Shown piece after piece: positions 4,415 through 19,829 of a stretch of 31,819 nt of DNA (positions within the stretch are counted from its first letter, which is position 1; each line of letters begins with the position of its first letter). A program made the translations under genes and the position numbers. Origin of the DNA: a virus; IMG/VR virus record IMGVR_UViG_3300008469_000296, positions 1 through 31,819 of that record; one strand, 5' to 3'. The notes below the pieces were generated by a model. The model had not been told where the DNA came from and did not search any database. It saw only the letters and a list, made by a program, of their open reading frames with translations.

Positions 4415-4698
4415 CAATCTAAAGTCAACCTTTCGGTTTGTTATAGTTGGACTATACCTTCACATATTGTGGACATATTATAGTCTCTGAACCTTCATCC
4501 TTTAATCACACTCGCGTGCAAATCTATCGGTAGGATGCTTGGATGCGGATTGTCCAATCTTGTATGATATTACCATACCTTCTAACCATTCTGTTAGAAG
4601 CCACTTAATAAATTACTTTATTAGTTTGGTTATACAAGCTCTAAGGAGTTCCCCGATCAGTTTAATGTCTTTATACTCACCATATTGTTTGTTAGTTT
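4415..4698 (-). ncRNA. Group I self-splicing intron in the DNA polymerase gene
   Basis: The 284-base intron has no ORF. P1 is a perfect 7-bp helix: the exon end ACTCGCT (4705-4699) pairs with the internal guide GGTGAGT (4681-4675), with the expected U-G pair at the 5' splice site. The 3' end is G (4415). Core elements are recognisable on the minus strand: a Q-like segment AATCCGCATCCAAGC (within 4537-4555), an R-like GTTCAGAGACTATA (about 4479-4492), and an S element AAGGTATAGTCC (4460-4449). R and S pair as GACTATA/TATAGTC to form P7. The layout resembles phage group IA introns such as T4 td. Both splice sites follow independently from P1 pairing and from restoring polymerase motif B. Confidence 0.92.
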
Positions 4699-6437
4699 AG
4701 CGAGTTCATTGAAATTTTCAGAGCCATCTGATTAGCATTCCAATATGCTTCTTTTTTACTGCAAACTGAAACTAATTCATTTGCTTTATCTATTGTTAAA
4801 CTATTTAAATTAACAGCATATAATTCATCAAACGATATTGAATTATCTTCAATAGTTTCCAAATTCCAATTAAAGTCACTAGATGAACCATCAGCGTTTA
4901 TACCATCTTTGATGTGTTGTTTTATCCTTGAACCCATTGTTTTATATTTCAACATTTTTTGTTTTGCAATTTTTCTATCAGAATAAATTGTGTCAATCAC
5001 TTCAGGAATAATACCTAGTTTATCATTTTTGAAAAATGCATTGATACCAAATGAAACATTGTGTTTTTTACAAATAGGCTCTATTTCATCCATGACTTTT
5101 TCATCAAGGAATTTAGTCTCATCTTCATCCCTTTGGTATTTATTTCTTAATGCCAATAATTCAGGATGCAATCTTTCTTCAGGGATATATGTCTCTGCTG
5201 ACATATTATGTGCCTTCATACCAAGTAATGGATACATTGAATTAACATCGATACTTGCTTCCCATTTATGCATTCCTTTTTGTGGATCAGCAACATAACC
5301 ACCTATTACACCTTTGTTTAAGGTATGCATTTCATCTTTTGGCATAATCAATCCTCTATAATATGCAAGATTAGTTAAATACATTCCCCAAGGTTTAACA
5401 GTCCCAAATGTATCATCATAGTTGATTCCCATCATATAAGCCAATGTTCTCATTAATTCCATTAAATTCAGTTTCATATCCAATTCATATAATATTTCAA
5501 TATCTTTTACAGCATACGAAATAAATTTATCATAATCACCTAAAAAGAATTCTGCAATATTATCAAATTCGCCGTAGTCAACTTTTCCTGACCCTTCACC
5601 CAGCTCGACTTTAGCAATATTATCAAGAGCATATGAAGTTTGTGTAGTATAAGTAAACTGCTTATACGCTTCCATCATATCAATTAAATAAACTCCTCCC
5701 CAGGATACAATCTTATTTCCACCAAACCCATCTTTTTCTGATACTGCACCTACAGGAGATAATTTCCTATGATTCACTCCACTTAAATTTTTTGCTCTAT
5801 TTGTAAGATAAGGGAAGTCAAAATATTCTCCGTTCCACGCAGTCAATATTGCTGGCTTCATATGGTCCATCAATTTGAAGAAAACTTCAAATAAATTTTC
5901 TTCGGTATGACAAACTTTCAGTGTCACATCAGGATGTTTTTCTTTGAATGCCACAGGATCTTTCACATTATCGATTACTAATATTATTTTTCCGTTTGTA
6001 AAATTATCATAAATTTGAATAGCATTCACTGGCCATTTTGCTTCGGTTGGATCAGGGAATCCTGCCCCAGGAGGTGGAACGGCTTCTATATCCAAGTACC
6101 AAATTCTCGAAGTAAATTGTTCTTGTTCTTTAAAATAATTATTTCTGATATGTGTATAAATATCATTTGATTTTCCAAATATCTCTTGATTCAATGTTTC
6201 TTTAGTTTTTATGAAATCATTCATTTCTTTGTGATTCAAAAAATTATGTTTTTGTAAGTATTTATCTTGTGAAAGTATAAATTTATAATCAGTTTTTTTA
6301 TTTTGTGGCGATTTTGTAAAAACTTCATATGTTGGCTTGAATGGTTTAAATGTAACTTCATTTGTTTCTGTATCAAAAAGTCTTTCAAATAATTTATTAT
6401 CTTTTGTTTTAAATATCATTTCATATTGTCTACTCAT
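4699..6437 (-). CDS. 43: DNA polymerase (gp43-like), exon 1
   Basis: This exon encodes the N-terminal domain, the 3'-5' exonuclease and the first part of the polymerase domain of a T4-type family B polymerase. Exonuclease motifs are YLDIEAVPP (Exo I), AWNGEYFDFPYL (Exo II) and YAVKDIEILYELD (Exo III). Polymerase motif A is SIDVNSMYPLL, with the first catalytic Asp. The exon ends inside motif B, after the second base of the Leu codon in NSL. Without splicing, translation would add Asn and stop at 4692. The ATG at 6437 follows CGGAG at good spacing. It lies directly downstream of the HNH gene and a 12-bp hairpin. Confidence 0.94.
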
Positions 6438-6465: not shown

Positions 6466-6492
6466 GTTACTAAATCATTTTGATTTAGTAAC
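6466..6492 (-). terminator. 12-bp hairpin between the HNH and polymerase genes
   Basis: A perfect 12-bp inverted repeat (GTTACTAAATCA / TGATTTAGTAAC) with a 3-base loop overlaps the stop codon of the HNH gene. The minus-strand tail is ATTATAATGATTTTT, only partly U-rich. It could end or attenuate transcription before the polymerase gene, or act as an RNA-processing or stability stem. Confidence 0.5.
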
Positions 6493-7618
6493 TTGCCTTT
6501 ATTATCATTTCTTTATTATTAACATCTTGATTGAACTCAGTAACATATAATTTACAATTGTTTGTATATTGAACTAAATCAGAAAGCGTTTTCAATTTTT
6601 TATTTTTCTTCTTTTGCTTTTCCAAAACCTTTTCAATTTTTTCTGATTCCAATTTCATATGAATAAACATCTTAACAGCAGAATGATCTCTTTGCATATG
6701 ATAATTATCACAAATCCATTTTACTGAACAGCCACTTTTATAATCCCTTAAAATATTATCTGAATTCGTTTCGCAAATATTGATCACTCTATTTTCATTA
6801 ACGGATTCTGCTGATTCAAATTTTGAAAGTATTTCATCATTCTCAATTAAATCAGCCAATTCTAATGGTTTGATTTTAAATTTTTGTGCAATAAATTTCA
6901 CATCATGACCTGTTTCGAGTAATTGTTTTATTTTTTCATATTCAATTTCAAATGCAGCTGCACATTTAGTTTTTTTCGATAATTTTATCCCGAAAGCTTT
7001 GGCAATTCTAAGAACTTCTCTTTTGGGTGATTTGCCTTCAATTCCTAGATTTTTTGCTAATTCAAAATGTGTGTTTATGTTATTTGTATATGAAGATAAT
7101 TTATATATATTAACAATTCTTTGCACATCTTCCTTATCAAATTTTATAAACACATCATCAGCATAATATTTTTTCATTATTGAAAAAAGATTTTTTCTGA
7201 ATTTTTCAACTCTTAAATCAAATGCATCAAGTTGTGCATTCCCCCATCCGAGTGTGTGTTTGAGATAATATTTTGTATTATCTGTATTGATCGAAGAATT
7301 CAAGTTTCCTTTAATAGGAATAAAATTCTCAATATAATTACTTTGTTTATTTGTGGCTTGAGCATCTATGTGTTCGATGCTCAAGTAATTTCCAAATTTA
7401 TGGTGTTGCTCATTTGTATTTTCTGCTGTTTGATACAAATCAATTTTTTCTTGTGTGATTATACATCTTTTATCACCTGCTAACCAGCATTGTTTCCTGA
7501 ATGTTGCATCTTGATAATTTTCTTTGATATTTAAAAAGATGAAAAGTTCGTCTAAAGTTAATGAATCATAATCATCAACTCTAAATATTTTAGCTGTCTG
7601 TTCTGTTAAATTTAGCAT
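6485..7618 (-). CDS. HNH-type endonuclease, probable free-standing homing endonuclease
   Basis: The N-terminal half (residues about 45-120) carries an HNH-like core: CIITQ, then LSIEHIDAQ with the catalytic His-type motif, then NYIENFIPIKGNLN with the conserved Asn. This pattern is typical of phage HNH homing endonucleases. The remainder (about 130-377) is basic and contains repeated short helical segments that look like DNA-recognition units, for example VKFIAQKFKIKPLELADLI and VKWICDNYHMQRD. The gene lies between folE and the intron-bearing polymerase gene, 9 bases after the folE stop. I infer it may mobilise itself or the neighbouring ORF-less intron. A non-homing role cannot be excluded. 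Confidence 0.75.
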   Translation of the reverse strand: MLNLTEQTAKIFRVDDYDSLTLDELFIFLNIKENYQDATFRKQCWLAGDKRCIITQEKIDLYQTAENTNEQHHKFGNYLSIEHIDAQATNKQSNYIENFIPIKGNLNSSINTDNTKYYLKHTLGWGNAQLDAFDLRVEKFRKNLFSIMKKYYADDVFIKFDKEDVQRIVNIYKLSSYTNNINTHFELAKNLGIEGKSPKREVLRIAKAFGIKLSKKTKCAAAFEIEYEKIKQLLETGHDVKFIAQKFKIKPLELADLIENDEILSKFESAESVNENRVINICETNSDNILRDYKSGCSVKWICDNYHMQRDHSAVKMFIHMKLESEKIEKVLEKQKKKNKKLKTLSDLVQYTNNCKLYVTEFNQDVNNKEMIIKASY

Positions 7619-17967: not shown

Positions 17968-18510
17968 TTAATTAAAATTCAAAGGAGATTCATTTATGCT
18001 TTGTTTCGGAACGCCAAATCCTAAATCGACTGCTTGACCAGGTGTTTGCTGTGGCTGAGCATCCATTTTTTGCACCAAAGCAGAATTATCATCTTCTTGA
18101 TCAAAAAATCGCATAGTATTGAAATCAACACCAAGTAAGTTTGTGCTCAGTCTACCAGTTCTTCTGTTTTTTAGAAATTTAATAGCAATTTGTTTTTCTT
18201 CAAACATTTGCTCATTTGCAAGCAATGCCATAACAACATCAGCTGTTTGAATAATTCCTAATGAATCTGCAATTGTATCCATACCAGCATCCATATTTCC
18301 GTAAGCACTATTATGTGTTAAAATTCCATTACACATAAATAAATGATCATCAGAAACTTCAATATCAATAGTATCAATATCTCCACAAGGTACTATAGAA
18401 ACAATTTCATCATCAAAATCAACTGATGTGAAATCAAAATTGTCATCAAAATTATGTTTGAATAAACCTTCTAATTCTTCTCTATCATCTTCCCAATTCA
18501 GTACTTCCAT
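17968..18510 (-). CDS. 41: Replicative helicase gp41, C-terminal fragment with C-intein
   Basis: The 180-residue ORF opens with a very acidic extension (residues 1-35), then the intein C-terminal block: DEIVSIVPCGDIDTIDIEV, DDHLFMCNGILTHN (blocks F and G, penultimate His and terminal Asn, residue 67). Ser+1 begins the C-extein SAYGNMDAGMDTIADSLGIIQTADVVMAL, which is the last part of the DnaB-like helicase core, including FLKNRRTGR (arginine-finger region). The ATG overlaps the stop of the N-half as TAATG and has AAAGGA upstream, so it is a designed restart rather than an obvious frameshift. The half closely resembles the known split intein gp41-8. Confidence 0.9.
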   Translation of the reverse strand: MEVLNWEDDREELEGLFKHNFDDNFDFTSVDFDDEIVSIVPCGDIDTIDIEVSDDHLFMCNGILTHNSAYGNMDAGMDTIADSLGIIQTADVVMALLANEQMFEEKQIAIKFLKNRRTGRLSTNLLGVDFNTMRFFDQEDDNSALVQKMDAQPQQTPGQAVDLGFGVPKQSINESPLNFN

Positions 18511-19829
18511 TATTTTATTCCTTTGCTACAAATTTTGTCCCCAGGTTTGAGATTATATAGTATACTTTTCAGACCTTCAGGTGTTGGGAATCTATGTTGT
18601 TTTGAAACTTTAATAGATTTTCCGGATTTGGTTTTTATTATGAATCCCTCTTGTTTGTGAACGTCGGATACATATTTTACTTTTCTTTTTTGATTATTAG
18701 TTCCAGTGATTTCATCACCTACCTTTAAATCACCAATATTAACATCTTTACCATCAAAAGTAGTAACCTTTTCACCAGTTTCAATACATCTATTCAATTG
18801 TCCAAATGTCACGACTGGCATATCTTCTTTTTTACAAAAACCGTGTAACTCTTCTGCGATTGCTTTATAATATTGATAGTTTCCACCAGATTGTGCTAAT
18901 GTAACTCTTGATGATGCCATAAGTGTCAAATAATCAATTACTACAGCATCAGGCTTAAAACCATCTTCAGATTCTAACTCATTCATGAGCGCTTTCATTT
19001 TAAGAACTGACATTTCACCAGCAGGATATTCCTTGATTATGAGTTTACCACACGATGGTTCGATCTTTTTTATTTTGCTGATATATTCTTCCTTTGATAA
19101 TTTCCACAATTCATTTGCAGGATGATTTATTAAATTCGAATCTATTCTTTTTCCTATTTCATATTCTGGCATTTCAAGTGTTAGAAATAAAACATTTTTC
19201 TTTTGAAGCATCATCGCAGCAGTAACACTTACACCATAAGCAGATTTTCCACCGTGAGAAGGGGCAACTATTACATTCAATGACTTCTTACTAAATCCAC
19301 CATTTAACTCTTTATCAATTGTATTTGTACCAGTTTTTACCGTCTCTTCATTATTATGATAATATTCATATCTCGAATCTGCATTTGTATTATACTCCAT
19401 ACCGGTATCATAATCAAAGGTAACTGCGAGTGCTTTTTCAACACAACCCAATACACCTTCAAATGGTTTATCATTTTCAATAATATTAGCAGATTCATAA
19501 ATCGCATCAACAAGTTCAATTTTTTGAATGTATTTTTCAGTTTCTCCTAATAGAAAATCATAATTATCTAATGGAGAATCTTGTACTATTTTCTTGAATT
19601 GTGAAATCACGGAAGGTTTCAAACTATCCTGGATTTCATTGCTCTGTTTAATAATCAATGACATTTCTTTAAAAGATGGTTTTGTATCATATTTTATCAC
19701 ATACCCTTGTATAATTTTAAATAGCTCTGAATTTTCAAGAGTTTTAAAGTGTGATGATTTTAAATGTGGATATACCTTTCCAAAATAGTCATTACTTTCA
19801 ACAATGTGTTTCAAAATTATATTTTCCAT
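18510..19829 (-). CDS. 41: Replicative helicase gp41, N-terminal fragment with N-intein
   Basis: This is the 5'-3' hexameric helicase of the phage fork. Residues 1-347 are the N-extein: a helical N-terminal domain, then Walker A APSHGGKS, LTLEMPEYEIGKRID, and VVIDYLTLM (Walker B). It breaks at VVTFGQLNR, the conserved strand before the DNA loop. Cys348 starts a 92-residue N-intein: CIETGEKV (block A), and KSIKVSKQHRFPT (block B with its His), ending Lys-rich at GIK. Joined exteins give 460 residues against 475 in T4 gp41. The insertion point, LNR before Ser, is the same as in the published gp41-8 split intein as I recall it. Unspliced, this fragment would lack part of the ATPase core. Confidence 0.92.
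   Translation of the reverse strand: MENIILKHIVESNDYFGKVYPHLKSSHFKTLENSELFKIIQGYVIKYDTKPSFKEMSLIIKQSNEIQDSLKPSVISQFKKIVQDSPLDNYDFLLGETEKYIQKIELVDAIYESANIIENDKPFEGVLGCVEKALAVTFDYDTGMEYNTNADSRYEYYHNNEETVKTGTNTIDKELNGGFSKKSLNVIVAPSHGGKSAYGVSVTAAMMLQKKNVLFLTLEMPEYEIGKRIDSNLINHPANELWKLSKEEYISKIKKIEPSCGKLIIKEYPAGEMSVLKMKALMNELESEDGFKPDAVVIDYLTLMASSRVTLAQSGGNYQYYKAIAEELHGFCKKEDMPVVTFGQLNRCIETGEKVTTFDGKDVNIGDLKVGDEITGTNNQKRKVKYVSDVHKQEGFIIKTKSGKSIKVSKQHRFPTPEGLKSILYNLKPGDKICSKGIK

What the first reader, a model, noticed from the sequence alone, without database searches (positions are those of the whole stretch)
17968..19829. Naturally split intein in the gp41 helicase with adjacent halves
N-intein (92 residues, Cys1) and C-intein (67 residues, His-Asn, Ser+1) sit in two ORFs that overlap by TAATG, with a ribosome site for the second. 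Most known gp41 split inteins have the halves further apart. The N-half ends Lys-rich and the C-half begins with a roughly 30-residue acidic extension not seen in gp41-8, suggesting charge-guided assembly.
Basis: partly seen in the sequence, partly recalled or inferred. Interest (0 to 1): 0.75.

Follow-up and report, generated by a model that had tools for sequence, protein, structure and literature searches.

The report
Overlapping-gene split intein in phage helicase
A phage replication helicase is encoded as two overlapping genes whose protein halves carry the two pieces of a self-splicing element (a split intein) and are presumably joined after translation; it belongs to a known family, but the halves sit unusually tightly together, probably because the homing-endonuclease gene that usually lies between them was lost.

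Summary
On the minus strand the T4-like gp41 helicase is coded by two ORFs (19829-18510, 18510-17968) overlapping by one base in TAATG. The first ends in a 92-aa N-intein; the second starts with a 67-aa C-intein and has AAAGGA 8 nt before its ATG. Splicing at QLNR|SA restores a gap-free helicase. It is a gp41 split intein at the gp41-8 site.

The surroundings change the interpretation. Of 129 distinct split gp41 inteins at three sites, 94 have an endonuclease-sized gap, 24 have adjacent halves, 10 are intermediate and only this one overlaps. Two near-identical contig pairs (99.9%, about 97%) differ by loss of the intervening gene across short repeats, so adjacency arises by endonuclease loss. 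The acidic extension is not unique: the endonuclease-bearing nearest relative (L003) and L004 have comparable ones. Basic-N/acidic-C charge is typical of the site. The halves are probably translationally coupled (inferred).

No splicing was shown. A sequencing frameshift is unlikely but not excluded, since no second copy of the junction was found. New variant of a known kind.

The parts
18510..19829 (-). gp41 helicase N-terminal half ORF (439 aa) including N-intein
   Evidence: Pfam DnaB_C E 4.5e-19; phrog_19 DnaB-like replicative helicase E 3.7e-69
18789..19829 (-). N-extein, residues 1-347, ending FGQLNR
18513..18788 (-). N-intein, 92 aa, Cys1; block-B-like SKQH
18519..18524 (-). Shine-Dalgarno AAAGGA for the C half, 8 nt spacing
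18508..18512 (-). TAATG: stop of the N half overlapping the start of the C half by 1 nt
17968..18510 (-). gp41 helicase C-terminal half ORF (180 aa) including C-intein
   Evidence: phrog_19 DnaB-like helicase, residues 68-145, E 3.5e-13
18310..18510 (-). C-intein, 67 aa, ends ILTHN
18412..18510 (-). acidic N-terminal extension of the C-intein (33 aa, net charge -10)
17971..18309 (-). C-extein, residues 68-180, starts SAYGN

Best explanation
This is a naturally split class-1 intein in the T4-like replicative helicase gp41, at the site QLNR|SA. The two halves are made from one mRNA. Ribosomes finishing the N half at TAA most likely re-initiate at the overlapping ATG with the help of the AAAGGA site (inferred), so both halves are made together in matched amounts. 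The intein halves then associate and splice in trans, joining residues 1-347 of the first protein to residues 68-180 of the second into a 460-aa helicase (inferred from intact catalytic residues and a gap-free extein). The adjacent layout most likely arose when the homing-endonuclease gene normally found between such halves was deleted. Such loss is shown in near-identical relatives and inferred for this lineage.
For: Intein residues intact: Cys1, SxxH, penultimate His, Asn, Ser+1; match to the solved gp41-1 intein. The spliced protein aligns without a gap across the junction to the DnaB-like helicase 8dtp, E 1.3e-51. Ribosome site present. The same split at the same site occurs in dozens of phage contigs. 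L004 at the same site has adjacent halves with a 19-nt gap and its own ATG. L003, best match to the C half and the tree neighbour (SH-aLRT 80), has a 350-aa ORF between the halves. L091 with and L096 without the intervening gene are 99.9% identical in the flanks, and L054/L058 with and L047 without about 97%; the missing segments are bounded by short repeats (TTACAAAAAA; GCTGGAA) and L096 keeps DNA of the 3' end of the insert found in L091. Coupling by termination-reinitiation needs overlaps or very short gaps, and -1 nt is one of the two commonest overlaps (PMC10666635).
Against: No splicing assay and no read data. The window intein has the longest branch of its tree (2.38 changes per column), so a weakened intein is possible and its placement is unsure. 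Similarity of the extension to that of L003 is modest (shuffle p about 0.01). Deletion of an endonuclease in the window's own lineage is inferred, not seen. The structure prediction of the C half failed (mean pLDDT 35).
Confidence: 0.85

Rival explanations
1. The break is a one-base assembly or sequencing error, or a recent mutation, in a contiguous cis-splicing mini-intein.
For: The two frames differ by one base within a short A-rich stretch (aataaaaTAATG), and contiguous gp41 inteins of 128-143 aa exist at the same site in 6 loci.
Against: The break coincides with an ATG carrying a good ribosome site, seen at only 6% of other ATGs. Contiguous relatives lack the 33-aa acidic segment, while split relatives L003, L135 and L004 carry a comparable one. 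Split forms outnumber contiguous ones 53 to 6 at this site.
Confidence: 0.08
2. A -1 ribosomal slip at A-AAA before the stop fuses the halves into one precursor that splices in cis.
For: A -1 slip at ATA AAA TAA would enter the C-half frame.
Against: No canonical slippery heptamer by inspection, no stable downstream structure (z = +0.76), and a ribosome site suited to independent initiation.
Confidence: 0.03
3. The intein halves are present but splicing is weak or lost; the halves act as a non-covalent two-piece helicase.
For: Long branch of the intein.
Against: All splicing residues are intact in both halves, and the break lies in a conserved helicase motif, where an unspliced 92-aa tail would be expected to harm function (inference).
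Confidence: 0.05

Closest known systems
gp41-8 split intein (sequence from memory; 45% N, 57% C identity in short MAFFT alignments)
   Same: Same protein, same flanks QLNR|SA, similar N-half length (about 90 aa), basic N / acidic C
   Different: C-intein 67 aa with a 33-aa acidic extension against about 45 aa; halves overlap by 1 nt
gp41-1 split intein (solved: 6qaz, 6riz)
   Same: Same intein fold family and host protein
   Different: Other insertion site (RSGY|SSSD type, flanks from memory); gp41-1 C-intein is 37 aa
Fractured genes with a free-standing endonuclease between split-intein halves (Dassa et al. 2009; seen only in reference lists; content from memory)
   Same: Helicase gene broken by a split intein; relatives L003 and L135 have this layout
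   Different: No gene between the halves here; ORFs overlap
MIJ3 PolB split intein with HNH endonuclease (PMC6892783)
   Same: Phage split intein in a replication gene
   Different: Different host protein; endonuclease still between halves

Membership tests
gp41 split inteins, gp41-8 site | N-intein and C-intein on separate ORFs of the same gp41 gene | tested here: met
gp41 split inteins, gp41-8 site | Insertion at Q-x-N-R | S in the helicase | tested here: met
   about 50 split relatives at the same site; gp41-8 flanks from memory
gp41 split inteins, gp41-8 site | Sequence homology to gp41 inteins in both halves | tested here: met
Class 1 inteins | Cys/Ser1, block B His, penultimate His, terminal Asn, Cys/Ser/Thr+1 | tested here: met
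   Cys1, SKQH, HN, Ser+1
Class 1 inteins | Protein splicing activity in trans | not testable with these tools
   needs co-expression
Fractured gene (Dassa type) | Free-standing endonuclease gene between the halves | tested here: not met
   gap -1 nt; so it is an endonuclease-less relative, not a full member of that layout

The most novel reading that the evidence does not exclude
A split intein whose two halves are translationally coupled by a one-base stop-start overlap, produced by deletion of the homing endonuclease together with the upstream part of a longer C-intein extension; a stage between endonuclease-bearing split inteins and contiguous mini-inteins.
Probability: 0.45. Interest if true: 0.55.

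Novelty: new variant of a known kind. Interest (0 to 1): 0.42.

Why it matters
Split inteins of this family are used as protein-ligation tools. The data give natural with/without pairs that show how the endonuclease is lost while the gene stays broken, and an overlapping pair in which matched supply of both halves may be built into the mRNA. Together with contiguous forms at the same site this makes the question whether split and contiguous inteins interconvert directly testable.

Tried and rejected
Searching viral contigs with the N half alone or with the window's Dda-like helicase gave no relatives; alignments of inteins did. Bacterial and archaeal genome contigs gave gp41 or DnaB relatives but no gp41-type intein. 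Exact junction search in viral contigs: none. AlphaFold of the C half with a 4-row alignment was uninformative, so no fold search was made. Frameshift-stimulating structure: none found. Pfam search of the acidic extensions gave nothing above cut-off; the CheR_N hit of the L003 extension (19.5 bits, cut-off 27) was not used. Endonuclease state (with/without) is not clustered on the intein tree (15 changes, shuffled mean 15.6), in line with repeated change, but most branches are weakly supported and the direction of change cannot be read from the tree.

Full report
What is there. The window is a whole 31,819-base IMG/VR virus record, a fragment of a T4-like phage by its genes: UvsX, a clamp-loader gp44-like ATPase, gp46/47-like proteins, a Dda-like helicase and a family-B DNA polymerase. 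Nearly all genes are on the minus strand. The gp41 helicase occupies 19829-17968 in two ORFs that share one base, TAATG at 18512-18508. The first ORF carries helicase residues 1-347 and a 92-aa N-intein, the second a 67-aa C-intein and 113 helicase residues.

Is it an intein? The two halves placed end to end hit the solved gp41-1 intein at E 7e-9 and DnaB inteins more weakly. Cys1, SKQH, LTHN and Ser+1 are intact. When the intein is left out, the protein aligns over the junction without a gap to the DnaB-like helicase of 8dtp (E 1.3e-51). Aligned with gp41-8 (sequence from memory) the halves are 45% and 57% identical and share the flanks QLNR|SA.

Relatives. Scans of viral contigs with the two half-alignments returned about 160 loci, and a third scan added more. 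I searched their six frames with profile HMMs for N- and C-intein and classified insertion site and spacing. Three sites occur in gp41: a, Q-x-x-R|S; b, R-x-G-[FY]|S; c, [SA]-[ED]|S. Counting distinct sequences, 129 are split. In 94 the gap is 670 nt or more, mostly with an ORF of about 220-460 codons; 10 have gaps of 130-419 nt; 24 have gaps of 0-129 nt; and this one overlaps by 1 nt. Six, all at site a, are contiguous inteins of 128-143 aa. The start codon of the C half was chosen by rule, so single gap values may be off; the sample is biased to relatives of the query. That the intervening ORFs are homing endonucleases rests on the known fractured-gene layout and on inspection, not on a family hit.

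How adjacency arises. L091 (about 1,260-nt insert with a 418-codon ORF) and L096 (gap 21 nt) are 99.9% identical on both sides; L054/L058 and L047 are about 97% identical and differ in the same way. The missing segment is bounded by TTACAAAAAA in the first pair and GCTGGAA in the second, and L096 continues with DNA that in L091 is the 3' end of the insert, as a deletion between repeats would leave it. So endonuclease-less adjacent halves look like a derived state in these cases. On a tree of site-a inteins the eight adjacent forms count as eight separate occurrences.

The window's own lineage. The tree puts the window next to L003 (SH-aLRT 80) within a group with L004 and L135, but on a very long branch. 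L003 has the gp41 N half, a 350-aa ORF and the gp41 C half, followed further on by the polymerase gene. L003 and L135 keep an ORF between the halves and carry C-intein extensions of about 70 aa that are clearly related to each other; the window and L004 have no such ORF and extensions of 33 and 28 aa. The shared end is IDFNDEI in L003 and L004, IEFNDEI in L135 and VDFDDEI in the window. The likeliest reading is that the ORF and the upstream part of the extension were deleted together, possibly twice; this is inference.

Charge. At site a the mean net charge is +5.6 for N and -9.2 for C halves, at site c +5.8 and -10.7, at site b +1.0 and -4.4. The window (+8, -18) is at the strong end, but so are the C halves of L003 (-20) and L135 (-18). 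Charge attraction between halves may be real for the family, but nothing singles out this one.

Coupling. A -1 overlap with AAAGGA 8 nt before the ATG fits termination-reinitiation. Published tests in E. coli and Haloferax show that coupling is almost abolished by gaps of about 20 nt, and that -4 and -1 overlaps are by far the commonest and are enriched for subunits of complexes (PMC10666635; also PMC6728339). By that measure the window pair should be coupled, and most other gp41 split inteins should not. Several other gene pairs in this window also abut or overlap, so tight packing is ordinary for this genome and the overlap need not be selected for splicing.

Verdict. A real, probably functional, naturally split gp41 intein, a known kind, in an unusually tight layout that is best explained by loss of its endonuclease gene. 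Shown here: the anatomy, the family, the insertion site, the intact residues, and endonuclease loss in near-identical relatives. Inferred: trans-splicing, translational coupling, and endonuclease loss in this lineage.

Noticed in passing
window 4424-4700 (-): The DNA polymerase gene is also interrupted, by a likely group I intron of about 277 nt without an ORF (Rfam RF00028, full-length match, 17.4 bits, below the 50-bit gathering score). Exons read ...KISMNSL | YGALSNKYFVLFNRDIAA.
   Followed up: partly
window 6485-7618 (-): A 377-aa ORF just upstream of the polymerase gene has an HNH-like stretch by eye (LSIEHIDAQATNKQSNYIENFIPIKGNLN); no Pfam or PHROG match. Possibly a free-standing endonuclease.
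   Followed up: no
L002 2382-5362 (ON528746.1): Shigella phage ESh36, an 'UNVERIFIED' T4-like record, has a gp41 split intein at site c with a 332-aa ORF between the halves; it was the only phage record matching its C-intein. A culturable model if confirmed.
   Followed up: partly
L003 1692-1913, L135 5410-5616, and site-c loci such as L054: C-intein halves with conserved 50-70 aa N-terminal extensions of unknown role, no Pfam match above cut-off.
   Followed up: partly
L042, L128, L129, L157: Contiguous gp41 inteins nested among split ones; the linker of L042 (REMSNVFEIDDEI) resembles the start of a split C-intein, as if the halves had been fused again.
   Followed up: partly
L072, L073: Contigs in which gp41 carries two split inteins, at sites b and c, so that the helicase is in three pieces.
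   Followed up: no
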